Shown piece by piece: positions 24,883-37,847 of a DNA stretch of 64,000 nucleotides; positions within the stretch are counted from its first letter, which is position 1, and each line of letters starts with the position of its first letter. This DNA is from Xanthobacter dioxanivorans (GTDB lineage Bacteria > Pseudomonadota > Alphaproteobacteria > Rhizobiales > Xanthobacteraceae), in NCBI RefSeq assembly GCF_016807805.1, contig NZ_CP063362.1, forward strand, positions 3,638,501 through 3,702,500, in the 5' to 3' direction. A model generated the notes under the pieces. It made no database searches. It saw only the letters and a list, made by a program, of their open reading frames with translations, and was not told the origin of the DNA. A program made the position numbers and the translations under genes.

Positions 24883-25944
24883 TCACCCCGCCAGAACGTC
24901 CGTGTCCGGCGCGATTCCCTTGGAGGTGGGCGCGCCGTCGTCCAGGGGCGCGAGATAGTCCAGCACCATGGGCCGGAAGCGCGGCAGGCCCTTGTAGCTG
25001 GCGATGTCGGGGTGGAGGTCGCGCAGCACGCGATGCAGCCGGCGCCGCCATTTCGGCACCTTCGCGATGTCGGCGACGCTGGTGAGATAGCAGCGGATGC
25101 CGAACAGGATCGCTCCGGAGCGCGGCAGTCGGAACAGCGTCTGAAGTTCCACCCGCAGGTGCGCCTTCTCGGCCACGTTCTCCGGGGTGACGCTCGCCTT
25201 GTCCGGTCCCCACACGGGGTAATTCTCCGGCGAGGTGTCGAGGCGCGGATTGATGGTCATGGTCCAGTTCAGCCGCCGCACCGGCTGGCCGTACTGGAGG
25301 CGCAGCAGATACTTCAGCGCCCGGTCGAACACGCCCTTTTCGTGGGCCAGCGGCACCGGACCGTGCCATTCGTGGAAGCTCATGCCGATGTCGAATTCCA
25401 GCGACCAGTCGGCCTGGGTGGTCACCATCCCGCCGTCCACGTAGAGGTTGTCGTCCCGCTGGTCCTGCAGGGTGAAGTCGCCCTGCGCCTGCCGGGTGAT
25501 GTACTCGAAGGGCGGGCAGGGCAGGGTTTCCACCTTGCCGAAGGTGAAGCTCTGCTGGATGCCGAGCGGCCGGTTGACCCAGGTCCACAGGTCCCCGGCC
25601 TTGGCCAGGGAGAAGTGCTCGGGATAATCCGCCGCCATGCTCTCCATGATGAGCTCGAGGGTGTCCCACTCGGCGGCCATCATGTGCGGCAGAACCTGGC
25701 AGCGCTTGGGGTCCTCCTTCAGCACCCGCTCGCGCTCGCGGCACTCGGCGATGTAGTGCTCGTCGATGTCGAAGGTGGCACGGAAGGCGGCGGTCGGGCC
25801 GCCGCGCACGTGCGGCTCGATGTTCACCGAGTACATGTACTCGTCCTCGGGGAACGGGAACGGGAAGCGCAGGATGTCCTCCGGCGACTTCCTGTAGGTG
25901 AAGGTGTCGCGGAAGGTTTCGGCGGGCTTGAACTGAAGGGTCAT
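24883..25944 (-). CDS. DUF3445 haem-dependent oxidative N-demethylase (catalytic subunit)
   Basis: 353 residues across the full DUF3445 family length. Recognisable blocks include EHYIAECRERERVL, WTWVNRPLGIQQSFTFGKVE and LNWTMTINPRLDTSPENYPV. The family is the PAS-fold haem subunit of the oxidative N-demethylase described from Pseudomonas mendocina and of bacterial dimethylamine monooxygenase, which release a methyl group as formaldehyde. It is the last gene of a minus-strand series; the PDR/VanB reductase and DmmA-like protein just upstream are the expected electron-transfer and accessory partners. The actual amine substrate is not shown by sequence. Confidence 0.82.
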   Translation of the reverse strand: MTLQFKPAETFRDTFTYRKSPEDILRFPFPFPEDEYMYSVNIEPHVRGGPTAAFRATFDIDEHYIAECRERERVLKEDPKRCQVLPHMMAAEWDTLELIMESMAADYPEHFSLAKAGDLWTWVNRPLGIQQSFTFGKVETLPCPPFEYITRQAQGDFTLQDQRDDNLYVDGGMVTTQADWSLEFDIGMSFHEWHGPVPLAHEKGVFDRALKYLLRLQYGQPVRRLNWTMTINPRLDTSPENYPVWGPDKASVTPENVAEKAHLRVELQTLFRLPRSGAILFGIRCYLTSVADIAKVPKWRRRLHRVLRDLHPDIASYKGLPRFRPMVLDYLAPLDDGAPTSKGIAPDTDVLAG

Positions 25945-25961
25945 ATTCTTCCTCCCACGGG

Positions 25962-26918
25962 TCAGAGGTCGAGCACGAGGCGCGGCCCGCGGGCGCGGGA
26001 CACGCAGGTCATGATCAGCTTGCCGCTGGCCTTCTCCTCGGCCGAGAGGAAGTCGTCGCGATGGTCCGCCTCGCCCTCGATCACGGGCGTGGCGCACTCG
26101 CCGCAGGCGCCGCCCCGGCACAGGCAGGGCGCGGCGACGCCGGCCGCCTCGATGGCCTCCAGCAGGCTCTGGGTCTCGCCGACCTCCACCTCGATCCCCG
26201 ATTTCTTCAGGACGGCGCGGAAGGGCAGGCCGGAGACGTCGCCGCCGAAGCTCTCCTTGTGGATCTTGCCCTTCGGCCAGCCGAGCCCGGCGGCGGTGCC
26301 GGTCACCGCATCCATCAGGCTGTGCGGCCCGCAGACATAGAGGTGCGTGCCGAGCGGCTGGCGCGCCAGCAGCCCGGCGAGGTCGAAGGCGGCGCGGCCG
26401 CCTGAATGCACCCGGATCTCCTCGGCCGCCGCATAGGGGGCGAGGAGACGCTCGAACACCGGGGCTTCCTCGCCGGTGGCGAGCTGGTGCAGCTCGAATC
26501 GGGCGCCGCGCGCCTTCAGCTCCGGCAGGAAGGAGAGGAGCGGCGTGATGCCGATGCCGCCGCCGACCAGAAGGTGCTTCCTCGCCGTGGCGGCGAGGGA
26601 GAAGAGGCTGATGGGGTTCGCCATCTCCAGCACGTCGCCGGGGACGACGCTGCGATGGAGAAAGGACGAGCCGCCGCGGGACTGGGCCACGAGCCGCACG
26701 ATGATGTCGTAGCGGGTGCGCTCGGTGGGCGGCGTGACCAGGGAATAGGCATTTTTCATCACCCGCGCGCCGTCGCGCAGGGTGAGCATCACGTGGCCGC
26801 CCGCCGGCGGGGTGGGGAACTGGCCGCCGTGCGCCGGCTCGAACGAGAAGCGCTTGAGGCTCGGCGCGAGTTCCTCGATCTCGCGGACCCGCACATGCAG
26901 GGGTTCTCCGGCGGTCAT
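25962..26918 (-). CDS. PDR/VanB-family flavin/2Fe-2S oxidoreductase
   Basis: 318 residues. It has an N-terminal flavin-binding barrel (MKNAYSLVTPP), an NAD(P)-binding domain (LLVGGGIGITPLLSFLPEL, LYVCGPHSLMDAV) and a C-terminal plant-type ferredoxin domain with CRGGACGEC and the distant Cys in LIMTCVSRA. This is the phthalate dioxygenase reductase layout. It should pass electrons from NAD(P)H to the haem subunit encoded 17 bases downstream. The ATG overlaps the end of the DmmA-like gene (ATGA), so the three are probably co-translated. Confidence 0.87.
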   Translation of the reverse strand: MTAGEPLHVRVREIEELAPSLKRFSFEPAHGGQFPTPPAGGHVMLTLRDGARVMKNAYSLVTPPTERTRYDIIVRLVAQSRGGSSFLHRSVVPGDVLEMANPISLFSLAATARKHLLVGGGIGITPLLSFLPELKARGARFELHQLATGEEAPVFERLLAPYAAAEEIRVHSGGRAAFDLAGLLARQPLGTHLYVCGPHSLMDAVTGTAAGLGWPKGKIHKESFGGDVSGLPFRAVLKKSGIEVEVGETQSLLEAIEAAGVAAPCLCRGGACGECATPVIEGEADHRDDFLSAEEKASGKLIMTCVSRARGPRLVLDL

Positions 26919-27502
26919 CGATAGAGCTCCTCGGCCGCAGGCACCTCGCCCGGCACTTCGGCGTCGATCTGGACGCCCATGAAGGCGGCGAGCCGCCGCG
27001 AGAAATGATCGCGCACGAACAGCGCGGCGCCACATCCGGTGCAGGTGACGATGGAGGTGGTGACCTTCTCCATCACCTCCCGGCAGTGGACGCAGAAAAT
27101 GCGCCGGGCCTTGGGCCCCACATGGGCAAAGCCCATCTCCTGGCGGCTCAGGCCCGCCCTCTCGCCCATGCCATAGGCATCCCACAAGAAGGGCTCCGGG
27201 CCGACCGCATAGAAGCGCAGGCCCATGGTCTCGCGGGCGAGGCGCTCCTCCAGCGCCGAGAACAGATGCGGGGTGGAGCGGAAGGTGCGCACCGCGCCCG
27301 CCGCTTCCTCCATCATCGGCGCGCCCGGCACCGCGCTCCTGCGGGCCACCGTCCACACCTCGAAGGCGGAGGGGGTGACCCCCTCCGCCAGCGCCTCGGG
27401 CGGGACCTCGGCGCCGTCCACGACCATCAGATGATGCCGGCCCGCCGGGTCCGGCGCGATCGGCTGGTAGCTGGGACGGCTCTTGATGCCTTGATCGCTC
27501 AT
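26915..27502 (-). CDS. DmmA-like dimethylamine monooxygenase subunit
   Basis: 195 residues. An N-terminal alpha/beta region (HHLMVVDGAEV, MGLRFYAVGPEPFLWDAYG) is followed by a zinc-ribbon-like end with CVHC...CTGC separated by about 14 residues (ARRIFCVHCREVMEKVTTS), then SRRLAAFMGVQID. This matches the DmmA family found beside DUF3445 and PDR/VanB genes in methylated-amine degraders. Its exact function in the complex is unsettled. It is overlapped by the reductase gene downstream and lies 11 bases after the permease gene. Confidence 0.75.
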   Translation of the reverse strand: MSDQGIKSRPSYQPIAPDPAGRHHLMVVDGAEVPPEALAEGVTPSAFEVWTVARRSAVPGAPMMEEAAGAVRTFRSTPHLFSALEERLARETMGLRFYAVGPEPFLWDAYGMGERAGLSRQEMGFAHVGPKARRIFCVHCREVMEKVTTSIVTCTGCGAALFVRDHFSRRLAAFMGVQIDAEVPGEVPAAEELYR

Positions 27503-27513
27503 CTCGTCTCCGC

Positions 27514-29196
27514 TCAGTAGACCGCCAGCATGCGGGCCACGATGATCACCACCGCGCCGCCCGCAAGCGCGAGATAGGGCAGCATCCCCGCCTTCACGCC
27601 GGCGCCCGGCTCGGCCTTCAGGTGCATGTCCTCCATCATCGCCGCCGGGAACCGGCCCTTGTCCGTCACGTAGTGGCGGAACAGGAACACCGGGATGATG
27701 GCCGCCGAGACCACGAGGCCGGTGACCAGCGTGCCCGCGCCCCAGATGTCCGCCCCCATGCCGAGCAGGAACAGGTTCACGAAGGCAAGCACCGTGCCCA
27801 TGCCGATCAGCCAGGTGGGCGCCTTGAAGGGGCGTTCCCAGCCCGGCCGGTCGATGCGGTGCATCCAGGCGGCGTTGAGGTTGAGGAAGTTGAACAGGAT
27901 GTAGCAGACGTTGGAGATGGCGAGGATGAACACGTAGTCCGACATCATCAGCAGGATGAGGTTGAAGCCGAGGTCGGTCCACATGGCCTTGGTGGGCGCG
28001 CCGTTCTCGTTCACGTGGCTGAGGTACTTGGGCAGCCAGCCGTCCACCGACGCCTGGTAGAGCGTGCGCGAGGAACCGGCCATGGAGGTGATGATGGCGA
28101 GCATGAGCGCCAGGATCAGCATCACCACGATCACGTTGTGGACGATGGGGCCGCCCTTGATCATGTCGGCCATGGCGCTGGCGACGCCCATGCCGGAATA
28201 GATGTCGGCGGAGAGGATGCCGTCATACACCGCCGGCGTGGTCACCGTCCCGGAGGCATCCACCACCGCCGGTGTCACCAGCTGGCCGAGGCCGAGCACG
28301 CCCTGGAACGAGATGGGCACGATGGTGAACACGAAGATGCACAAAAGGCCGGAATACAGGATCGCCTTGAAGGTGTCGGTCTTCGGGTCCTTGAACTCGC
28401 GCGTGTAGCAGACCGCGGTCTCGAAGCCGTAGGTGGACCAGGCGGCGATGAACAGGCCGCCGGCCATGAGAGTGATGCCGGCCATGTTCCAGGAACCGGC
28501 GATCACCTTGCCCGCCTCGTCCTTGGCCAGCGGCGCGAACGGGCCGAGATTGGCCGCGAGCACGTCGCCGGTGACCAGCGGCACGAGGCCGATGAGCACC
28601 AGCGGCAGCAGCGCCACCACGCCCAGGATCACCTGCACCTTGGCGGTCTGGCTGATGCCGCGATGCTGGATGGCGAAGGCCACCAGCAGCAGGGCCGCGC
28701 CGAGGAAGAAGGTTGCGTTCAGGCGCAGCGCGAGGCCGGTCTTGAGCCAGCCGAGGTCCACCAGCGTGAGCTGCCAGGTGTTGATGGCGGCATCCGCCGG
28801 AAACAGGATGGACAGCACGTAGCCCGCCGCGAGCCCCGAGCCGATGGACAAGACCGGCGACCAGGCCAGCCAGTTGCACCACACGGAGAAGGGCGCGAGC
28901 AGCTTGCCGTAGCGCACCCAGGCGATGGCGCCGTACACCGAGGCGCCGCCCGACTTGTGCGGGAACAGGCCGGCGATCTCCGCATAGGAGAAGGCCTGGA
29001 TGAAGCCGAAGATGATGGACACGATCCACACGAACCAGGCCGGCGCGCCCACCGTGGCGCCGATGGCGCCGATGGAGAAGAGCACGAGCGCGGGCACGCC
29101 GCTCGCGATCCAGAACGCGCCGGTCCAGCTGATCTTGCGTTGAAGCGTGCCGGCCTCGGGCGCGGCGACAGCCTCGGTGGTTGCTGCGATGCTCAT
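27514..29196 (-). CDS. APC-family amino acid/amine permease
   Basis: 560 residues with about 12-13 membrane helices. Family features include IGAIGATVGAPAWFVW early on, GLFPHKSGGASVYGAIAWV, and MAGSSRTLYQASVDGWLPKY in the late loop. The Leu/Val-rich extension between helices 9 and 10 and the long C-terminal segment make it longer than typical 450-residue APC members. The ATG at 29196 has GAGGGG upstream. Co-direction with the N-demethylase genes suggests uptake of the amine or amino compound degraded by them; specificity is unknown. Confidence 0.82.
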   Translation of the reverse strand: MSIAATTEAVAAPEAGTLQRKISWTGAFWIASGVPALVLFSIGAIGATVGAPAWFVWIVSIIFGFIQAFSYAEIAGLFPHKSGGASVYGAIAWVRYGKLLAPFSVWCNWLAWSPVLSIGSGLAAGYVLSILFPADAAINTWQLTLVDLGWLKTGLALRLNATFFLGAALLLVAFAIQHRGISQTAKVQVILGVVALLPLVLIGLVPLVTGDVLAANLGPFAPLAKDEAGKVIAGSWNMAGITLMAGGLFIAAWSTYGFETAVCYTREFKDPKTDTFKAILYSGLLCIFVFTIVPISFQGVLGLGQLVTPAVVDASGTVTTPAVYDGILSADIYSGMGVASAMADMIKGGPIVHNVIVVMLILALMLAIITSMAGSSRTLYQASVDGWLPKYLSHVNENGAPTKAMWTDLGFNLILLMMSDYVFILAISNVCYILFNFLNLNAAWMHRIDRPGWERPFKAPTWLIGMGTVLAFVNLFLLGMGADIWGAGTLVTGLVVSAAIIPVFLFRHYVTDKGRFPAAMMEDMHLKAEPGAGVKAGMLPYLALAGGAVVIIVARMLAVY

Positions 29197-29264
29197 GGTT
29201 TTCCCCTCGATTATGGCGGGGAGTTTCTCCACACGAAAATTTATTGTCAATGAAGATATACATG

Positions 29265-29277
29265 TGCCGTAACGGCA
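29265..29277. promoter_or_regulatory. Palindrome upstream of the permease gene (candidate operator)
   Basis: The 13-base sequence tgccgtaacggca is a perfect inverted repeat with a 3-base centre. It lies in an AT-rich gap, 69 bases before the permease start, with two caattg hexamers at 29310 and 29321. The gap (29197-29433) is unusually AT-rich for the window and probably contains the permease promoter. Operator function is inferred from symmetry only. Confidence 0.35.
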
Positions 29278-29433
29278 TTTCGAGATGAATTTTTAGACGA
29301 TACTCTGCACAATTGTTGTTCAATTGAATTTCATGCAAACAAGATCGGCGCCAGGCGAGATGTCGCCTAGCGTTTGCTGGGCCAATGCCTTGACTTTACC
29401 GTTTCGGATCGCCGCCGCGCGCGAGCTCTACCG

Positions 29434-31736
29434 TCAGGCACGCACCCGCGTCTTCTGCGGATCGAAATGGGGAAGGGCACGATTTCCGCGGCGATGCGCT
29501 TTCTTTGCCCATCCAGCTTGCCGACCTCCACCTGGGTGCCGATCGCCGCGTGGGCCACGTCGATGCGGGCCAGCGCAATCTGTGCCCTCAGGATGGGCGA
29601 ATGGGTGGCCGAGGTGACGACGCCCACCTGCGCCCGGCCCATATGGATCGGATCGCCATGGCCCACGGCGTCGTTGTCCTTCACCTTCAGGCCCACGAGC
29701 GTCTTCGCCGGATTGGCCTTGCGCCGGGCGAGCGCCGCCTTCCCCACGAAATCCTCCGCCTTCTCCGCAACCGTGAAGCCGATGCCGGCCTCGTACGGGT
29801 CGGTCTGGTCGCAGAAGTCGTAGCCGGCGAAGACCAGCCCGGCCTCGATGCGCAGCATGTCGAGGGCGGACAGGCCGAGCGGCTTCATGCCCCTGGGCGC
29901 GCCCGCCGCCCACACGGCGTCGAACGTGGCGCCGGCATCCTTGGGATGGCACCAGATCTCGTAGCCGAGTTCCCCCGTATAGCCGGTGCGCGAGACCACG
30001 ACCGCCGGCCCCATGGGGCCGCCGAGGCGCGCCACCGCGAAGCGGAACCATTTCAGCTCGGCGATGGAGGGCTGCGTCGGCCCGGTCCAGATCACCTGCG
30101 CGAGGATCTCCCGCGACAGCGGCCCCTGCACGGCGATGTTGTGCAACTGGTCCGTGGACGAGCGGACAAAGGCCTTCAGGCCCCATTCGTGCGCCTTGCC
30201 GCGCAGCCAGGCGCCGGTGAACTCCTCGCCGCACACCACCCGGAAGTTGGCGGGGGCGAGCCGGAAGATGGTGGCGTCGTCGAGCATGCCCCCATGCTCA
30301 TAGGTCAGCGCCGTGTAGACCACCTGGCCCACCGCCAGCTTGCGCATGTCCCGCGTCACCGTGCGCTGGAGGAGGAGCTCCGCATCCGGCCCGGTCACCT
30401 CGAACTTGCGCAGCGGCGACAGGTCCATGATCGCCGCCTTCTCGCGGCAGGCCCAGTATTCGGCGATGGGCCCCTCGCCGGTGAAGCAGGTGGGCAGCCA
30501 GAAGCCGCGATACTCGACGAAATTGCGGGTCAGCTGCGACAGGCGCGGCTGGAAGGCGCTCTCGCGCGTCAGGCGCGGCTCGGCGTCGGCACTCATGCGG
30601 AACGCGATCCCCTTGGAGAAGGCCTCGGCGGCGTCGTAGACCCGCACGTGGATGTCGGTGGGCTCCCAGCCGTTGGCCGGATCGATGTCGTCGGCGCAGG
30701 ACGAGGTGGCGCAGACGAGGTCGGTCAGCGCCTTCAAAAGCACGTAGTCGCCGGGCCGCGACCACGGCTCGTCCATGGTGATCGCGTTGGTGTGGTCCAC
30801 GGCGGTATTGTAGAAGAAGTTGATGGCCGGCCAGCCGGCCCGCGTGCGGATACCGTAAGGCTCCAGCACGGCGTTGAAATTGTCCGAGCAGTTGGCGTGG
30901 CCCGGATAGCCTATGTCCTCGTAATATTTGGCCGAGCAGGCGAGGGCGAAGGTGTCGTGCCGGCCCACCGTGTCGCGGATCACCTCCACCAGCGGGACCT
31001 GCCGCTCGTCGTAATATTTCGAGTGCAGTCCCGGCCCCGGATAGGCGGCGCCCATGAGCGTGCGGGTGGTGGTGGCATCGAGGCCGAATTCTTCGCCTTT
31101 TTCCAGCGCCACGGCGTCGAAGGCGAGGAAGTCCGAGCACTGGCGGCCGTCCACGTCGATGATCTGGATATAGTCGCCGGCCTTCACGCGAAAGGCGCGG
31201 GCCTGCGCGGCCGGCACCCGCAAATCGAGCTTGGTCTCCGCCAGAGGCGGGGGGAGGGGGCGTTCGTTCCCGCTGGCCCGGGTGACGGTGACCACGAGGT
31301 CGGTGGGCGCATCCTGCGCATCCGGGGCCATGGGCGCACCGGGCGCGGCGATGACGGCCAGCACGTCCTGCGCCGCCACCAGGCTCACCTCGGTTCCCGC
31401 CGGCTGATCCCCAGGCAGAACCTTCGCGCCGGGAGCATCCTCGCACCCGACGCCGCGCGCCGGCAGGAGGCGCGCCACCTCGGCGGCCGCCTCGCCTCCC
31501 AGCTTCAGACTTTCCGCAAGGCTGCCCGCCGCCGCACCTTGCAGCCCAAGCGCCTCCGCCGGGTCGGCTCCGACCGCGAACACGAGCGCCGGCTGCAGCC
31601 CTTCCGGGTCGAGGATGGTGATGCCATCCCCGGCTCCGAGCCGGATCGCTGCACAGCTGCCGCCCCGCACCACCACCCGCTCGCGCGGGACAAGGGGGCT
31701 GCGGGAGGAGCCGGGCGGCAGGAGGGAAAAGTCCAT
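29434..31736 (-). CDS. DUF1989-GcvT fusion (THF-type aminomethyltransferase), C-terminus frameshifted
   Basis: About 767 residues if corrected. Residues ~1-165 are a divergent DUF1989-like half; ~170-370 are a DUF1989 domain (VKAGDYIQIIDVDGRQCSDF, GHANCSDNFN); ~400-760 are a GcvT-fold folate-binding domain (SPLRKFEVTGPDAELLLQRT, GLSALDMLRIEAGLVFAGYD). Near the end the frame runs into Arg-rich nonsense to 29367. Adding one base in the GGGG run at 29469-29472 restores the family ending PFPHFDPQKTRVRA and a stop at 29434. GcvT enzymes move C1 groups onto tetrahydrofolate. The ATG directly abuts the stop of the flavin reductase gene. Confidence 0.78.
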
Positions 31737-32249
31737 TCAGCCCTCTTCCATCGGGGTCGCGAGCAGCCGGTAGCTGCCACGGTAATAGAGCAGCGGGTCG
31801 CCGTTGCCTTCGGCATGCAGGTGCACCACGCGCCCGACAAAGATCACATGGTCGCCGCCGTCATAATGGGCGTAGGGCACGCACTCGAAGACCGCATGGG
31901 CAGGCACGAGGCGCGGGGCGCCGGACGGGCCGATCTCCCAATGCGTGCCGGAGAACTTGTCCTCGCCGGGACGGGCGAAGCGGTTGGAAATCTCCTGCTG
32001 GTGCCCGAGCAGGATGTTGACCGAATAGGCCTTCGCCTTTTCCAGGCGCTTCAGGGAATGCAGCGAACGGGCCATGCAGAACAGGACGAGGGGCGGATCG
32101 AGCGAGACGGAGGAAAATGAATTCACCGTCACGCCGATGGGGCCGTCCTCGTCCCGCGCCATCACCACGGCAATGCCGGTGGCAAAACGGCCAAGCGCAC
32201 TGCGCAATTCGCGCGGATCGAAACGGGCGTCGATATCGATGGTGGTCAT
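31737..32249 (-). CDS. Flavin reductase domain protein (FMN reductase of a two-component oxygenase)
   Basis: 170 residues: LRSALGRFATGIAVVMARDE, then GVTVNSFSSVSLDPPLVLFC, the split-barrel flavin reductase signature, and GGDHVIFVGRVVHLHAEG near the end. Such proteins supply reduced FMN or FAD to a partner monooxygenase. The ACAD-fold protein encoded 128 bases upstream is the obvious partner. An in-frame start at 32279 would add 10 residues; 32249 gives the conventional N-terminus, but both ribosome sites are weak. Confidence 0.82.
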   Translation of the reverse strand: MTTIDIDARFDPRELRSALGRFATGIAVVMARDEDGPIGVTVNSFSSVSLDPPLVLFCMARSLHSLKRLEKAKAYSVNILLGHQQEISNRFARPGEDKFSGTHWEIGPSGAPRLVPAHAVFECVPYAHYDGGDHVIFVGRVVHLHAEGNGDPLLYYRGSYRLLATPMEEG

Positions 32250-32315
32250 GGAAAGAAACTCGCTGAAAAGATGGTCCACGACCCGGACTATAATCCGTCC
32301 CGCCGGTGAGCGCCT

Positions 32316-32345
32316 TAATCACAAATGCCCACCGGCATTAGATTA
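32316..32345. promoter_or_regulatory. Extended palindrome upstream of the flavin reductase gene
   Basis: Nested inverted repeats: outer arms taatc (32316-32320) and gatta (32341-32345), inner arms aatgcc (32324-32329) and ggcatt (32334-32339) around cacc. There is no T-tract on either strand, so an operator is more likely than a terminator. The inner TGCC...GGCA half-sites resemble the palindrome at 29265 before the permease. Inference from symmetry only. Confidence 0.35.
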
Positions 32346-32377
32346 TGTGATGGTCGGGATCAGCCGGCGCGCCGGCC

Positions 32378-33781
32378 TCAGGCCACCTTGGCCGGCTTGA
32401 TCTCCGCCAGCAGCTTTTCGGCGAGGGCGCGCTTCTCCTCGTCGTCCATCTTCTTGATCTCGTTGTTCAGCACCCGCTCGTTGATGGACTTGTTCCAGTA
32501 GTCCAGCGAGCCGAAGCCGAGCAGCGAGGCCTTGCCCACGAACTGGCGCAGCACCTCGTTGGTGGGGCCCATCACCCATCCGGCCTTGCCGTCGCGCAGG
32601 TAGCGCTCGATCTGCAGGGCGGGGCGGAAGCCGGTGCCGCCGGTGGCGTGGAGCATCTTGTCCACCACATGGGCGACGTTCTTCGCCGCCTCGAACTTCA
32701 CCTGCCACAGCCAGTGCAGCAAGGCGGAGCGGGGCAGGGCGTCCACGTCCTTGTGGATGGACCAGTCGCAATTGTTGGTGACGGAATCCAGCGCCTGCGC
32801 CATCTGGAAGTCGAAGGCACGGCAGGAATTGGTATCCATGATCGCCTCGCCCACATAGTCCTGGATGGTGGGGTAGTCGGCGACGCGCATGCCCACGTCA
32901 TTGTGGGTCTTCCTGGTGGTGTGGCGCTTGGCGATGTCGATGACCGCGAGCGAGATGCCGTTCCAGCAGGCCGACGAGCAGGTGAGGAAGAACGGGTCCA
33001 CCACCTCGTCGTTGGATTTCGCCCCGTCGCCGATGGGGCCGACGAGGGCGTCCTTCGGCAGGATGGCGTTCTCCACCATGATCGGGCCGGACTGGTTGCC
33101 GCGCAGGCCGAGGCCGTCCCACTCGGAGGGATTGGCCTTCACCTCGTCCTTGGTGACGAGGAAGCAGGAGAGGTCCGAATAGTCGCCGGCAAATCCGGGG
33201 CTGGTGGTCTGCACGATGTACCAGTCGGCGAAACCGCCGGAAGTGGTCCAGGACGCCTTCTTGGTCACTTTCCAGCCGTCGCCGTGGGCCTCGGCCTTGG
33301 ACGAGATCGGATACCAGAAGTGCGAGCCGGTCTCCGGGTCCGAATAGGACAGGGTGCCGATGAGCACGTCCCTGTCGAGGCGCTTCAGGATGTCGGTGAG
33401 GATGGGGTTGTCGTGGTGCCGCAGCAGCGCGGCAGCGGTGGCGCCGAGGTGCATGGTGTAGCACATGGCGGTGGAGGGGCAGCCGTAGCGGGCGATGGTC
33501 TCCACCACCATGGCGGCGCACACGTGGTTCTCGCCGAGGCCGCCGAGTTCCTTCGGCACGTTGAGCGACAGCAGGCCGAGCGTGGCGAGCGCCTCGAAAT
33601 TCTTGCGGGGATAGATGTAGCTGGCGTCGCTCTCCACCGCATTGGCGCGCAGGGTGGATTCGCACAGGGCGATGAGCTTGCTTTGAAGCGCCTTCTGGGC
33701 GGGCGACAGCAGCCATTGGGGATCCCACTCGAAGCCGAGACCCCAGAACTCTTCCTTGCCCCACATCTTCACATCGGCCAT
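32378..33781 (-). CDS. Acyl-CoA dehydrogenase-fold flavoprotein, possible monooxygenase
   Basis: 467 residues with ACAD N-terminal, middle and C-terminal domains (LGLLSLNVPKELGGLGENHV, TSGGFADWYIVQTTSPG, LHATGGTGFRPALQIERYLR). At the usual Y-E-G-T catalytic position the sequence reads WVMGPTNEV, so the common catalytic Glu is Met. Together with the flavin reductase gene downstream, this resembles ACAD-fold two-component monooxygenases of the DszC type rather than a CoA dehydrogenase. The ATG at 33781 has GGAG upstream. It is the first gene of the minus-strand series. Substrate unknown; a Glu elsewhere, as in isovaleryl-CoA dehydrogenase, is not excluded. Confidence 0.78.
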   Translation of the reverse strand: MADVKMWGKEEFWGLGFEWDPQWLLSPAQKALQSKLIALCESTLRANAVESDASYIYPRKNFEALATLGLLSLNVPKELGGLGENHVCAAMVVETIARYGCPSTAMCYTMHLGATAAALLRHHDNPILTDILKRLDRDVLIGTLSYSDPETGSHFWYPISSKAEAHGDGWKVTKKASWTTSGGFADWYIVQTTSPGFAGDYSDLSCFLVTKDEVKANPSEWDGLGLRGNQSGPIMVENAILPKDALVGPIGDGAKSNDEVVDPFFLTCSSACWNGISLAVIDIAKRHTTRKTHNDVGMRVADYPTIQDYVGEAIMDTNSCRAFDFQMAQALDSVTNNCDWSIHKDVDALPRSALLHWLWQVKFEAAKNVAHVVDKMLHATGGTGFRPALQIERYLRDGKAGWVMGPTNEVLRQFVGKASLLGFGSLDYWNKSINERVLNNEIKKMDDEEKRALAEKLLAEIKPAKVA

Positions 33782-34163
33782 GACTTCAAGCTCCGCCTGG
33801 GCCGGGGCCCCGACCGGCCCGTCCCGCAGTTGCGATCTCGCTGGGTGGCGACCTGTTCCCCTCAGTGAACTTTTTTGACGCCGTAGAAACACTTTGCCAA
33901 TGGCTGCGCCGTGTGCAAGCCCATTGATTGAGCGGAGGCGGAGGCGATATCGATCTGAAAATGATCAGACGCTGACGCTGCAAGGGTTGTGGCCGCCTAA
34001 TTCCGCGCCAGTCGGCGTGCGGTATTTCTTCTAAGGAAAAGTAATTGACAGTGAAGTGCGGCGCCGATCAGGATGTGCCCGTCGCGGCAGGATCGGCAGG
34101 CACCGCCTTGCCTCCGCCGCCTCTCATTTCAAGACAGGCCGAGAGCCGCAGAGAGGGGACAGG
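33782..34163. promoter_or_regulatory. Divergent promoter region of the catabolic locus
   Basis: These 382 bases separate the ACAD-like gene (minus) from the GcvT gene (plus) and contain no convincing gene. The centre is relatively AT-rich. A TTGACA at 34045-34050 is a candidate -35 for the plus-strand gene, but no good -10 follows at 17 bases. It is the likely control region for both transcripts. No regulator gene lies in the locus. Confidence 0.4.
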
Positions 34164-35294
34164 ATGACGAGCGCAACCATCTGGCGCCAATCGATCCTCA
34201 ACGAGCGCCACAGGGAGCTGGGGTCGAAGCTCGAGGAATCGTGGAACGACATGGCGATTCCCCAGCATTACGCCACCGATCCATACGCGGAGACCGAGGC
34301 CGTGCGCACGCGCGCCGGTCTGTTCGATGTGTCGGCGCTCAAGATCATCAACGTCTCGGGCAAGGATGCCCTCGCCTTCCTCAACCAGCTCGTCACCGCC
34401 GACATTGCCAAGGTCCCGGCCGGCCGCTCCATGATCTCCTCCATCGTCGATGACGAGGGCGGCCTCATCGACGACGTCCTGATCTATGCGGATGGAGACG
34501 GCGCCTACCGTCTCTCCCACGGCGGCGGTGCTCTGGAGGACGCGCTTCCCCTCGTCGCGGAAGGCTTCGACGTGGCCTTCTCCCGCGACAACGACGTGCA
34601 CATCCTGTCGCTCCAGGGGCCGAAGGCCCTCGACATCCTGTCCCCCCACACTCCCATGGACCTGAAGAGCCTGCCCTATTTCGGGCACGGCAGGACCACG
34701 CTGTTCGGCGTGCCGGTCTCGCTGGCGCGCGGCGGCTATTCGGCCGAGCGCGGCTACGAGGTGTTCTGCGCCGCCAAGGACGCGGTGGCCCTATGGGACA
34801 AGATCCTGGAAGCGGGCGCGCCGTTCGGCGCCATGCCGGTGTCGTGGGACTGCCTCGACATCGTGCGGGTGGAAGGCGCGCTGCTCTTCTTTCCCTTCGA
34901 CATGCCCCATAAGGACACGACACCGTTCGAGGTGCTGATGGACTGGTCGGTGGACCTCTCCAAGCCCGACTTCCGCGGCAAGGCGGCCCTTCTCGCCCGT
35001 AAGGGCACCGAGCGCACCCATCAGGCCGGTCTCGAGGTGCTGGCCCCCAGGGCCATCACGCCGGGGGCCAAGATCTTCAAGGATGGCGTCGAGGCGGGCG
35101 TGGTGAATTCCACCACCTACAGCCAGCACCTCATGAAATCGCTGGCCCTCGTCTCGCTCCAGCCCGCCTTCACCGCCCTCGGCACGGTCGTCAGCGTGAC
35201 GGACGGGGACGAGAGCTTCGAGGCGAGCGTGGTGCGCACGCCCTTCTACGATCCCATGCGCCTGCGCACCCATCCGCTGGAGGAGCGCGGCTGA
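34164..35294 (+). CDS. GcvT-family aminomethyltransferase
   Basis: 376 residues, a full-length folate-binding GcvT fold: AVRTRAGLFDVSALKIINVS, then FLNQLVTADIAKVPAGRSM and the C-terminal VVRTPFYDPMRLRTHPLEER. The family includes glycine cleavage T-protein, dimethylglycine/sarcosine demethylating domains and DMSP demethylase; this member has no dehydrogenase domain and no gcvH or gcvP nearby. The ATG follows GAGAGGGGACAGG. Divergent transcription from the seven-gene N-demethylase series suggests it also captures C1 units. It ends at a strong terminator. Confidence 0.83.
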   Translation: MTSATIWRQSILNERHRELGSKLEESWNDMAIPQHYATDPYAETEAVRTRAGLFDVSALKIINVSGKDALAFLNQLVTADIAKVPAGRSMISSIVDDEGGLIDDVLIYADGDGAYRLSHGGGALEDALPLVAEGFDVAFSRDNDVHILSLQGPKALDILSPHTPMDLKSLPYFGHGRTTLFGVPVSLARGGYSAERGYEVFCAAKDAVALWDKILEAGAPFGAMPVSWDCLDIVRVEGALLFFPFDMPHKDTTPFEVLMDWSVDLSKPDFRGKAALLARKGTERTHQAGLEVLAPRAITPGAKIFKDGVEAGVVNSTTYSQHLMKSLALVSLQPAFTALGTVVSVTDGDESFEASVVRTPFYDPMRLRTHPLEERG

Positions 35295-35342: not shown

Positions 35343-35383
35343 GGGCGGCGGGAGGGGGTCTTTCCCTCCCGCCGCCCTTTTTT
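35343..35383 (+). terminator. Rho-independent terminator
   Basis: A 14-base perfect stem (gggcggcgggaggg paired with ccctcccgccgccc), a 7-base loop and six T. It lies 48 bases after the GcvT stop and before the convergent dioxygenase gene. Confidence 0.93.
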
Positions 35384-35402
35384 GCGTTTGACGCGCTTGT
35401 CC

Positions 35403-36344
35403 TCACAGGGCCTTCAGCCCCGCCTCGATCTGCACCCGACGGCCTTCCAGGAAGGGCGGCAGGGCGAGCCGCTCGCCGAGATGCGCGGCGTCCTCGTCGG
35501 CGGCGAAGCCCGGCCCGTCGGTGGCGAGCTCGAACAGGATGCCGTTGGGCTCGCGGAAATAGAGCGAGCGGAAATAGAAGCGGTCCACCTTGCCGCTGTT
35601 GGGTACGCGCAGCTCCTTCAGCCGCTTCGCCCATTCCTCGTATTCGTCGAAGCTGGTGACGCGGAAGGCCACGTGATGCACCGCGCCGGCGCCCTGGCCG
35701 GCGGGGGAGAGGCCGGGCTCCACCTTCACATGGACCTCCGCCGCCGGGCCGCCTTCGCCCATCTCGAACACATGGATCGCACGGCCCTCCTCGCTGGCAT
35801 AGGTGCGGGCCTCCCGCATGCCCATCACATGCATCAGCACCGCCGCCGTGGGGGCGAGATCCGGCACCGACAGCAGGATGGGGCCGAGGCCGCGTATCTG
35901 GCTGCCCTCCGGCACCGGGCTTTTCGCCCACGGCACGCCCGGGCCCTTCCCTTCGTCCACGATCAGGCCGAGGCGCTGGCCTTCGCGGTCCTCGAAGGAC
36001 AATTGGTGGCGGTCGTCGCGGGTTTCGATGCCGGCATGGTCGACGCCTGCATCCGACAGGCGCGCAGCCCAGTATTCGAGGGCGGCTTCGTCCTTGACGC
36101 GGAGGAACGTGCGCACCGCCGCATGGCTACCGCGCCGCTCGCGGGCCACAGGCCAGTCGAAGAAGGTGAGGTCGGTGCCGGGATTGGCCTCGCCGTCCGC
36201 GTAGAACAGGTGATAGGCGGAGGTATCGTCCTGGTTCACCGTCTTCTTCACCAGCCGCATGCCGAGGGTCTGCGTGTAGAAGCGATGGTTGTAGGGGGCG
36301 TCCGCCGTGATGGCGGTCACATGGTGGAGGCCGGTGAGCTGCAT
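35403..36344 (-). CDS. VOC-superfamily ring-cleaving dioxygenase
   Basis: 313 residues with two glyoxalase-like halves. Probable metal ligands are His in [10 protein letters not shown], His in AVHHVAFRV and Glu in [11 protein letters not shown], the His-His-Glu pattern of PcpA/LinE-like extradiol enzymes. [20 protein letters not shown] is a strongly conserved block of this subgroup. Many members are annotated as ring-cleaving dioxygenases, though glyoxalase-like activity is also possible. GGAG lies 8 bases before the ATG. It is single-gene and convergent with the GcvT gene. Confidence 0.83.
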
Positions 36345-36629
36345 GGCGATGTCTCCGGCAGGATGTTCCTGCGCTTTCGTGTCCCGCCTGAGATAAGCCC
36401 GCGTCCCGCGCCGGGCGATGCCCGAAGTCGCAAAGCGAGTTTGCGATACTGCAATAAACTGATCTGCGGTTCGGTATATGGGCTTGCCGTGTTGCACTCA
36501 ATTTGGAGGCGGGCGCCGCAATCCGCCGCCGCCTACCTCCCGCCAAGATGGCGTTCAGCATTCGCCCTGAAATACCGCGCTTCCGGGCCTCGGTTGTGCC
36601 ATGAAGAAAAATTGCGTGGGGGGAACGGC

Positions 36630-37847
36630 GTGCAGATGCTTGAGCGTGGGCGGCGGATGCCGGGTCTGGGGAAAGCGCGTCGCGCGGCGGTGCGCGTGGC
36701 GGTCCTTGCGACGTGCCTCGCACTCCTCGCCGGCTGTGGCTCGCGTCCCGGGCCGGATGCCCTGACCCCCGTCGGCGCCACGGTGCCGGGCACCCATGAG
36801 CACGTCATCCTCGTTGCCTCCACCCGCGAGCGCGATCCACGGCCGGGCGTCCTCTTCAACGGCGAGCGCTCCACCGCCCTCAGCTTCGCCAAGGTCGACC
36901 TCTCGGTGCCGCCCGCCCACAAGCCGGGCGAGATCGAATGGCCCAAGCAGGGTCTCGGCGATCCGAGCACCGACATGGTGGTGCGCGAGGCGCTGTTCCG
37001 CGACACCCAGCAGGAGTTCCTGCGCGACCTCAAGTCGGAGCTGGCGCGCCGGCCGGTGGGACAGAAGAAGGTGTTCATCTTCGTCCACGGCTACAACACC
37101 ATGTTCTCCGAGGCGCTCTACCGCCTGGCGCAGATGGCGCAGGATTCGGACGCCCCCGCCGTGCCGGTGCTGTTCACCTGGGCCTCGCGGGCGACCACGG
37201 AGGCTTATGTCTACGACAACAACAGCGCCACCGCCGCCCGCGACAAGCTGGAGGAGACGATCCGTCTCACCTTCGACAGCGGCGCGGAAGAAGTGAGCAT
37301 CATGGCCCACTCCATGGGCAACTGGGTGACGGTGGAGGCCCTGCGGCAGATCCGCATTTCCGGCAAGGGCCTGCCCGCCAACAAAGTCGGCAACATCATC
37401 CTCGCCGCCCCCGATATCGACGTGGACGTGTTCAAGAGCCAGCTCAAGCGTTTCGGCAAGCCGGCGAAGCCGTTCGTGGTCATCGTTTCGCGCGACGACA
37501 AGGCGCTTGGATTCTCCGATTTCATCGCCGGCAACAAGGTGCGGCTCGGCGCCTTCACCAACGATGCCGAACTGGTGGACCTCGGCGCCATCGTGGTGGA
37601 CATGAGCGACGTGAAGGCGCTGGACAGCTTCAACCACGGCAAGTTCGCCCAGCTCGCCGAGATCGCCCCGCAACTGCGGGGCAGCGTGATGCGGGGGGCC
37701 ACCGCCAATGGCGGGACCGCCCCCGACACCCTCTCCATCGACGGCGTGAAGATCAGCGGCCTGGACCACCTGAGGCTCCAGTCCCAGGCGCTGAACCAGC
37801 CCGCCACGGCCGCTGCGCCCGCGCCCGCCGCCCCGCCCGCGCAGTAG
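36630..37847 (+). CDS. Alpha/beta hydrolase lipoprotein (DUF900)
   Basis: 405 residues from a GTG with a GGGGGG run six bases upstream; the ATG at 36636 is an alternative. The lipobox is LALLAGCGS. The hydrolase core has KVFIFVHGYNTMFSEALYRL, the nucleophile Ser in IMAHSMGNWV, and AAPDIDVDVF with VIVSRDDKALG near the acid. This is the DUF900 esterase family, expected at the periplasmic face. A Pro/Ala-rich tail ends the protein. Its substrate is unknown. The 285-base gap to the divergent dioxygenase holds both promoters. Confidence 0.82.
   Translation: MQMLERGRRMPGLGKARRAAVRVAVLATCLALLAGCGSRPGPDALTPVGATVPGTHEHVILVASTRERDPRPGVLFNGERSTALSFAKVDLSVPPAHKPGEIEWPKQGLGDPSTDMVVREALFRDTQQEFLRDLKSELARRPVGQKKVFIFVHGYNTMFSEALYRLAQMAQDSDAPAVPVLFTWASRATTEAYVYDNNSATAARDKLEETIRLTFDSGAEEVSIMAHSMGNWVTVEALRQIRISGKGLPANKVGNIILAAPDIDVDVFKSQLKRFGKPAKPFVVIVSRDDKALGFSDFIAGNKVRLGAFTNDAELVDLGAIVVDMSDVKALDSFNHGKFAQLAEIAPQLRGSVMRGATANGGTAPDTLSIDGVKISGLDHLRLQSQALNQPATAAAPAPAAPPAQ

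What the first reader, a model, noticed from the sequence alone, without database searches (positions are those of the whole stretch)
24883..35294. Candidate undescribed amine-catabolic system combining haem N-demethylase with folate-linked C1 capture
Eight genes combine the DUF3445/PDR-VanB/DmmA set known from oxidative N-demethylation with an APC permease, two GcvT proteins (one fused to DUF1989), a flavin reductase and an ACAD-fold protein without the usual catalytic Glu. The known set frees methyl groups; GcvT domains can load C1 onto tetrahydrofolate. The extra flavin pair suggests an oxygenation step on a larger substrate than dimethylamine, for example an N-methylated amino acid or betaine. 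I know of no described pathway with this combination.
Basis: partly seen in the sequence, partly recalled or inferred. Interest (0 to 1): 0.75.

Follow-up and report, generated by a model that had tools for sequence, protein, structure and literature searches.

The report
Trimethylamine pathway with unusual first enzyme
This gene cluster is largely a known bacterial route for using trimethylamine N-oxide and dimethylamine, but it seems to carry an unrecognised kind of enzyme, built like a fatty-acid dehydrogenase, in the place where other bacteria keep their standard trimethylamine-oxidising enzyme.

Summary
Six match described proteins: the DUF1989-GcvT fusion passes the curated TMAO demethylase (Tdm) model and has the published metal-site residues, the permease passes the TMAO permease model, three genes are dimethylamine monooxygenase DmmABC, and the lone GcvT is probably DmmD. 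So the substrate is most likely trimethylamine/TMAO, not an N-methyl amino acid or betaine. The unexplained pair is an ACAD-fold protein with a flavin reductase. I propose a two-component trimethylamine N-monooxygenase standing in for the FMO-type Tmm. Evidence: Tdm lies within 10 kb in 39 of 43 well-flanked ACAD loci; of 49 Tdm genomes 9 have an ACAD relative, 30 have Tmm, none both; a flavin reductase lies near Tdm in 34 of 62 ACAD-linked loci and 0 of 33 others; the Tdm tree needs five or six ACAD/Tmm changes. Against: 5 of 79 ACAD genomes have Tmm, in two beside the ACAD; many loci lack a nearby reductase; the tree-aware test lacks power. Activity and substrate are untested. Likely a new variant of a known pathway.

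The parts
24883..25944 (-). DmmC, haem-dependent oxidative N-demethylase alpha subunit (dimethylamine monooxygenase)
   Evidence: PF11927 248.7 bits; start at the Met of MTLQFKPAETF chosen from the translation
25962..26918 (-). DmmB, flavin/2Fe-2S reductase subunit
   Evidence: PF00970, PF22290, PF00111
26915..27502 (-). DmmA
   Evidence: PF22289, PF22290; NF041259 107.9 bits, cut-off 60
27514..29196 (-). TmoP, TMAO permease
   Evidence: NF053774 851.9 bits, cut-off 690
29367..31736 (-). Tdm, TMAO demethylase (DUF1989 + GcvT)
   Evidence: NF053776 1258.2 bits, cut-off 1100; 882 bits to PDB 9q59; metal-site residues present
31737..32249 (-). flavin reductase, proposed partner of the ACAD-fold protein
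   Evidence: PF01613 147.5 bits; a flavin reductase is near Tdm in 34 of 62 ACAD-linked loci, 0 of 33 controls
32378..33781 (-). ACAD-fold flavoprotein, proposed trimethylamine N-monooxygenase (group D type)
   Evidence: PF02771 and PF00441; no catalytic Glu at the MCAD position; model mean pLDDT 84.3 with full ACAD fold
33782..34163 (.). intergenic stretch between the divergent ACAD and GcvT genes, probably holding their promoters
   Evidence: sequence read; promoter role inferred, not tested
34164..35294 (+). stand-alone GcvT protein, probably DmmD
   Evidence: PF01571 212.9 bits; a 36% relative lies directly before dmmABC in Labrys loci L032, L037, L040

Best explanation
A trimethylamine/TMAO catabolic cluster. 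Proposed route: trimethylamine is N-oxygenated to TMAO by the ACAD-fold flavoprotein, using reduced flavin from the adjacent reductase and O2 (inferred); TmoP imports TMAO; Tdm splits TMAO into dimethylamine and formaldehyde; DmmABC turns dimethylamine into methylamine and formaldehyde; DmmD helps pass formaldehyde to tetrahydrofolate (these four by homology to described proteins). The ACAD-fold pair would be a non-homologous stand-in for the FMO-type Tmm.
For: Tdm and TmoP pass curated models; Asp202, Cys267, His280, Cys283 and Cys347 match published metal-site residues of M. silvestris Tdm (PMC12560246, passages) and are invariant in 57 of 57 ACAD-linked Tdms of the 81-row set. Own genome: no Tmm; the one long OYE-like frame compared with solved structures is NCR-like, not trimethylamine dehydrogenase. 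ACAD-Tdm linkage 39 of 43. Of 49 Tdm genomes: ACAD 9, Tmm 30, both 0 (Fisher p 4.5e-5, or 3.1e-4 without the chosen centres G000 and G401; leaving out G289 too, which has only a paralogue, 1.2e-3). Flavin reductase near Tdm: 34 of 62 ACAD-linked loci versus 0 of 33 Tdm loci without ACAD; Tmm lies in 21 of those 33 stretches. Tdm tree: six ACAD/Tmm changes, five without the unlinked row L153; well-supported branches force at least four changes of either label. Precedent: ACAD-fold group D two-component enzymes oxidise dimethyl sulfide to DMSO, which Tmm also does (PMC13352529, passages).
Against: 5 of 79 ACAD genomes also have Tmm (L020, L041 and three Labrys); in L020 and L041 it lies about 0.2 and 1.6 kb from the ACAD, so strict replacement is not the rule. 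28 of 62 ACAD-linked loci with Tdm have no flavin reductase found within 8 kb, and none of the 23 cyanobacterial loci, some of them short, shows one. Closest folds are ordinary acyl-CoA dehydrogenases; group D oxygenases are among the hits but not ahead. The contrast with Dmm is weak: DmmC is in 2 of 9 ACAD genomes versus 8 of 40 others, but both of the two are the chosen centres; without them 0 of 7 versus 8 of 40, p 0.33. Four of the nine ACAD genomes belong to one family (f36). The tree-aware pair test has two well-supported pairs and cannot reach significance. Some absences are in incomplete bins. No direct evidence on substrate or activity.
Confidence: 0.6

Rival explanations
1. The ACAD-fold/flavin reductase pair N-oxygenates a different methylated amine (dimethylamine, or a larger N,N-dimethyl compound whose N-oxide Tdm then cleaves), adding substrate range rather than replacing Tmm.
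For: ACAD and Tmm sit together in L020 and L041, whose genomes lack DmmC; 25 distinct ACAD genomes lack both Tmm and DmmC; among the 49 Tdm genomes, none of the 7 ACAD genomes other than the two centres has DmmC; M. silvestris Tmm itself also acts on dimethylamine (PMC3915288, passage).
Against: No ACAD genome among the 49 has Tmm, while DmmC lies in the same neighbourhood as the ACAD in 22 of 43 loci, many of them Xanthobacter and Zoogloea kin, and in 25 of 53 ACAD genome handles. Most Tmm genomes lack DmmC too (7 of 30 have it), so its absence is not special.
Confidence: 0.2
2. The ACAD-fold protein is an amine dehydrogenase or oxidase (iminium formation, no oxygen insertion), and the flavin reductase serves something else.
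For: Closest folds are dehydrogenases; 28 of 62 loci show no nearby reductase; two diverged paralogues lie in neighbourhoods that hold histamine/trimethylamine dehydrogenase-like proteins.
Against: A dehydrogenase would bypass TMAO, yet the gene is tied to a TMAO-cleaving enzyme; the reductase is frequent in ACAD loci and was not found in 33 control Tdm loci.
Confidence: 0.1
3. The ACAD-fold protein is an ordinary acyl-CoA dehydrogenase that happens to sit in the cluster.
For: Pfam and fold; the source names shown say acyl-CoA dehydrogenase.
Against: Gly in place of the MCAD-type Glu in 88 of 88; below the cut-off of every curated family listed; linked to Tdm in loci labelled with several phyla.
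Confidence: 0.04
4. One reading: an undescribed system for an N-methyl amino acid or betaine.
For: Combination of GcvT, permease and N-demethylase.
Against: Tdm and TmoP pass curated TMAO models and the Tdm metal site is intact.
Confidence: 0.03

Closest known systems
Methylocella silvestris TMAO/dimethylamine genes (tdm, TMAO permease, dmmABC Msil_3607-3609, GcvT protein Msil_3605); seen through PMC5520151 and PMC4543880
   Same: Tdm, TMAO permease, DmmABC and a stand-alone GcvT
   Different: M. silvestris has a functional FMO-type Tmm (PMC13390433, passage); here an ACAD-fold protein and a flavin reductase are in the cluster and no Tmm was found in the genome
Ruegeria pomeroyi and Paracoccus aminophilus methylated-amine genes (tmm, tdm, dmmDABC)
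   Same: tdm and dmmDABC
   Different: tmm present; no ACAD-fold pair mentioned in what I read (terms flavin reductase and acyl-CoA dehydrogenase occur 0 times in PMC4543880)
Group D two-component monooxygenases of ACAD fold: Dms1-3 of Acinetobacter baylyi (PMC13352529, passages), DszC and MsuC (structures)
   Same: Fold and separate flavin reductase; small substrate in the case of Dms1-3
   Different: They act on sulfur compounds; this family is linked to a TMAO-cleaving enzyme and shares only 18-19% identity with DszC and MsuC
ACAD-fold sugar N-oxygenases (DnmZ 4zxv, nitrososynthase 3mxl, and 3m9v, recalled as KijD3)
   Same: N-oxygenation on the ACAD fold (function recalled); found by sequence
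   Different: Substrates are nucleotide-linked amino sugars (recalled)

Membership tests
TMAO demethylase (Tdm) | passes curated NCBIfam model NF053776 | tested here: met
   1258.2 bits, cut-off 1100
TMAO demethylase (Tdm) | Zn/Fe site residues C263, C279, C343, H276, D198 of M. silvestris Tdm | tested here: met
   C267, C283, C347, H280, D202 in the window protein; constant offset of 4
TMAO demethylase (Tdm) | converts TMAO to dimethylamine and formaldehyde | not testable with these tools
   needs enzyme assay
TMAO permease (TmoP) | passes NF053774 | tested here: met
   851.9 bits, cut-off 690
Dimethylamine monooxygenase DmmABC | HODM alpha, FAD/2Fe-2S reductase and DmmA encoded together | tested here: met
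DmmD | stand-alone GcvT protein beside dmmABC | tested here: inconclusive
   domain and place fit; only about 36% identity to the GcvT before dmmABC in Labrys, and no curated DmmD model was hit
FMO-type trimethylamine monooxygenase (Tmm) | homologous to Tmm (PF00743; PDB 5ipy) | tested here: not met
   the ACAD-fold protein has ACAD domains only; no Tmm in the own genome
Acyl-CoA dehydrogenase | ACAD fold | tested here: met
Acyl-CoA dehydrogenase | catalytic Glu at the MCAD position | tested here: not met
   Gly405 in 88 of 88; the alternative IVD position was not checked systematically
Group D two-component flavin monooxygenase | ACAD fold without the MCAD-type Glu (loss of the Glu as a mark of the group is recalled) | tested here: met
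Group D two-component flavin monooxygenase | separate flavin reductase partner | tested here: inconclusive
   encoded next to it here and near Tdm in 34 of 62 ACAD-linked loci, not found in 28 of 62
Group D two-component flavin monooxygenase | O2- and reduced-flavin-dependent oxygenation | not testable with these tools
   needs enzyme assay

The most novel reading that the evidence does not exclude
A whole family of ACAD-fold, two-component flavoproteins is an independently evolved trimethylamine N-monooxygenase that has repeatedly exchanged with FMO-type Tmm beside the same TMAO demethylase. It carries aerobic trimethylamine oxidation into Xanthobacter, Zoogloea, Azoarcus and Caballeronia, into cyanobacteria and into uncultivated Gemmatimonadota and Latescibacterota, which surveys that use tmm as marker gene miss.
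Probability: 0.56. Interest if true: 0.75.

Novelty: new variant of a known kind. Interest (0 to 1): 0.6.

Why it matters
Trimethylamine oxidation in nature is surveyed by counting tmm genes (as in PMC5520151). If a second, unrelated enzyme type does the same step in soil, freshwater and cyanobacterial lineages, the capacity for trimethylamine turnover is being undercounted, and a family now named only as acyl-CoA dehydrogenase (often 'AidB-like') gets a testable function. It would also be a clear case of one reaction invented twice on two flavoprotein folds, parallel to dimethyl sulfide oxidation by Tmm and by group D enzymes.

Tried and rejected
Trimethylamine dehydrogenase in the own genome: of 10 PF00724 matches, only the 720-residue open frame (L145) was compared with solved structures; it scores 258 bits to NCR and 168 to trimethylamine dehydrogenase, so judged not to be one; the other matches were not compared. 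The two FMO-like proteins of the own genome (L001, L002; 639 and 591 aa) give only 63 and 49 bits to PF00743, and no match to Tmm reaches E 1e-40. ACAD as dimethylamine oxidiser instead of Dmm: not favoured, but the Dmm contrast turned out weak once the two chosen centres are left out; I lowered the main confidence from 0.62 to 0.60 and raised that rival to 0.20 for this. Tree-aware pair test: too few pairs. Growth of Xanthobacter on trimethylamine: searches (no paper; one listing; 24 listings; two papers looked at in passages, the rest only as listing) gave nothing usable; Starkeya novella, a family member, is reported negative on trimethylamine (PMC3570799, passage), and I did not check whether it has the cluster. 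Novelty searches: no paper; two papers in all; PMC13352529 read in passages, PMC11446756 seen only as listing; neither listing nor passages describe this. That library holds no preprints and few subscription papers. Fold comparison did not separate oxygenase from dehydrogenase. A recount for this report corrected the reductase count to linked, distinct loci and the tree count without an unlinked row.
Full report
Observation. The eight genes exist as described. On the minus strand, in transcription order, they are the ACAD-fold gene, flavin reductase, DUF1989-GcvT fusion, permease, DmmA, reductase and HODM alpha; a second GcvT gene faces the other way. Start sites were chosen from the translations. 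The window lies in a 6.65 Mb genome; the ACAD gene's nearest named relatives are Xanthobacter and Aquabacter species (best 96% to X. oligotrophicus).

The described part. The fusion passes the NCBIfam equivalog for TMAO demethylase (1258 bits, cut-off 1100) and the permease that for TMAO permease (852, cut-off 690). The fusion aligns along most of its length with the solved TMAO demethylase 9q59 (882 bits, residues 11-757 of 789). The residues reported for the Zn/Fe site of M. silvestris Tdm (C263, C279, C343, H276, D198; PMC12560246, passages) are present at a constant offset of four and invariant in all 81 Tdms of the first tree set (57 ACAD, 17 Tmm, 2 both, 5 neither); D346, proposed there as an iron ligand, is Asp in 50 of 57 ACAD rows, with 6 Ala and 1 Glu. 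DmmA passes NF041259, and the other two subunits carry the expected domains. DmmABC is an experimentally shown dimethylamine monooxygenase, and DmmD, a GcvT protein, is thought to capture formaldehyde on tetrahydrofolate (PMC5520151, Results and Discussion). The stand-alone GcvT here is probably DmmD: in three Labrys loci a 36% relative precedes DmmA, DmmB and DmmC in that order. That assignment is inconclusive.

Linkage. A scan of one genome per species returned 116 relatives, of which the best 80 were kept. Of 43 loci with at least 9 kb on both sides, 39 have Tdm within 10 kb, 27 a flavin reductase, 22 DmmC, 18 TmoP and 2 Tmm; the four without Tdm (L057, L062, L066, L068) are cyanobacterial, and two of them, L062 and L066, show a piece of Tdm under the threshold. 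Many of the 43 are Xanthobacter or Zoogloea kin. Loci with Tdm nearby come from alpha- and betaproteobacteria, cyanobacteria, and bins labelled Gemmatimonadota, Latescibacterota, Armatimonadetes and Obscuribacterales; bins may be contaminated. Neighbours in loci without Dmm include a GmaS-like glutamate ligase, ammonium transporters, N-methylglutamate synthase-like parts (names by my reading of weak or generic hits) and, in cyanobacteria, a primary-amine oxidase: methylamine metabolism.

Exchange with Tmm. In 385 genomes of the window's class, 34 have Tdm over 1000 bits; two more, G088 and G079, have only pieces and were not counted. Seven of the 34 have an ACAD relative of 60% identity or more, four of them from one family, f36. 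One of the seven, G289, has only the diverged paralogue L152 (61%), which lies on another contig than its Tdm. Twenty-one of the 34 have a Tmm match at E 1e-40 or better, one of them (G077) a broken piece. In 369 genomes of the class of a Zoogloea genome, 15 have Tdm at E 1e-150, 2 the ACAD and 9 Tmm. Together: 49 Tdm genomes, ACAD 9, Tmm 30, both 0, neither 10. Fisher p is 4.5e-5; without the two centres G000 and G401, chosen because they carry the ACAD, 3.1e-4; without G289, 1.7e-4, and without all three, 1.2e-3. These values treat related genomes as independent. DmmC is in 10 of the 49: 2 of 9 ACAD genomes (exactly the two centres) and 7 of 30 Tmm genomes, one in neither; ACAD versus DmmC p 1.0, without the centres 0 of 7 versus 8 of 40, p 0.33. 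So exclusion with Dmm is not shown, but the contrast is weaker than it first looks. Starting from the other side, 5 of 79 ACAD genomes have Tmm (5 of 50; 0 of 29, where the same query rang nowhere but had rung). In L020 and L041 Tmm lies beside the ACAD; in Labrys KNU-23 it is about 0.9 Mb away. Four genomes occur in both approaches (G163 with L038, G071 with L043 and G338 with L060, judged from equal contig lengths; G401 with L021). DmmC was found in 25 of 53 ACAD genome handles, which are 52 distinct genomes.

Control for the reductase. Within 8 kb on each side of Tdm, a flavin reductase profile built from ACAD loci hits 34 of 64 test loci and 0 of 33 Tdm loci without ACAD (31 of 46 versus 0 of 31 with at least 10 kb of flank). 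The 64 include L150, a second copy of the place in L038, and L153, where the ACAD is on another contig; neither has a hit, so the count for linked, distinct loci is 34 of 62 (p 9e-9). The 33 controls are 33 of the 40 Tdm genomes without ACAD (27 with Tmm, 6 with neither); seven were not fetched. Tmm is in 21 of the 33 stretches, in one (L185) about 10 kb from Tdm. The profile was trained on ACAD loci, which may favour them, and loci are not independent.

Tree. On a quick Tdm tree of 86 rows (58 ACAD, 18 Tmm, 5 both, 5 neither; L014 dropped as too short, nine duplicate loci left out) the fewest ACAD/Tmm changes are six, five without L153; labels are clustered (shuffles need 12 or more), yet well-supported branches alone force at least four changes of the ACAD label and four of the Tmm label. 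On the earlier 81-row tree, which had lost three 'both' rows and two others, four are needed. Many forks are weakly supported and several long branches are unsure. The tree-aware pair test had two supported pairs; in neither did Tmm go the same way as ACAD, and it cannot reach significance.

Reading. The ACAD-reductase pair fills the gene place that Tmm fills elsewhere, next to the same TMAO-cleaving enzyme. ACAD-fold two-component enzymes that oxidise dimethyl sulfide to DMSO were reported in 2026, and Tmm also oxidises dimethyl sulfide (PMC13352529, passages), so the chemistry is plausible for this fold. I therefore propose trimethylamine N-oxygenation, at 0.6. Shown: gene content, linkage, absence of Tmm in most ACAD genomes, absence of the Glu, Tdm site. 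By homology: TMAO uptake and cleavage, dimethylamine oxidation. Inferred: the N-oxygenation, the pairing with this reductase, DmmD's role. Not explained: loci with both ACAD and Tmm, loci without a nearby reductase, and the 25 distinct genomes with the ACAD but with neither Tmm nor DmmC.

Noticed in passing
L152:9533-11608 and L157:10490-12532: Diverged paralogues of the ACAD-fold protein (61% and 47%) have neighbours of the histamine/trimethylamine dehydrogenase family (727 and 792 bits to histamine dehydrogenase, 584 and 551 to trimethylamine dehydrogenase), in L157 with a glutamate synthase-like protein too; they may serve other amines.
   Followed up: partly
L050, L057, L062, L064, L066-L069, L072, L082: These ten cyanobacterial ACAD loci share a gene whose L050 copy is a primary-amine oxidase (991 bits to NF008559), suggesting methylated-amine breakdown in cyanobacteria.
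   Followed up: partly
L020 and L041: ACAD-fold gene and a full FMO-type Tmm lie in the same neighbourhood, in genomes without DmmC; a natural place to ask whether the two act on different amines.
   Followed up: partly
Tdm of L017, L019, L021, L022, L025, L026, L028, L029, L031, L036, L045, L051, L054 and 12 cyanobacterial loci: The alignment with the window Tdm begins only at residue 125-174, so the N-terminal DUF1989-like domain is absent or strongly diverged there, although a paper calls it ubiquitous (PMC12560246, passage).
   Followed up: no
window 35382-37847: The next plus-strand frame holds a DUF900 alpha/beta hydrolase domain; no sign that it belongs to the cluster.
   Followed up: no
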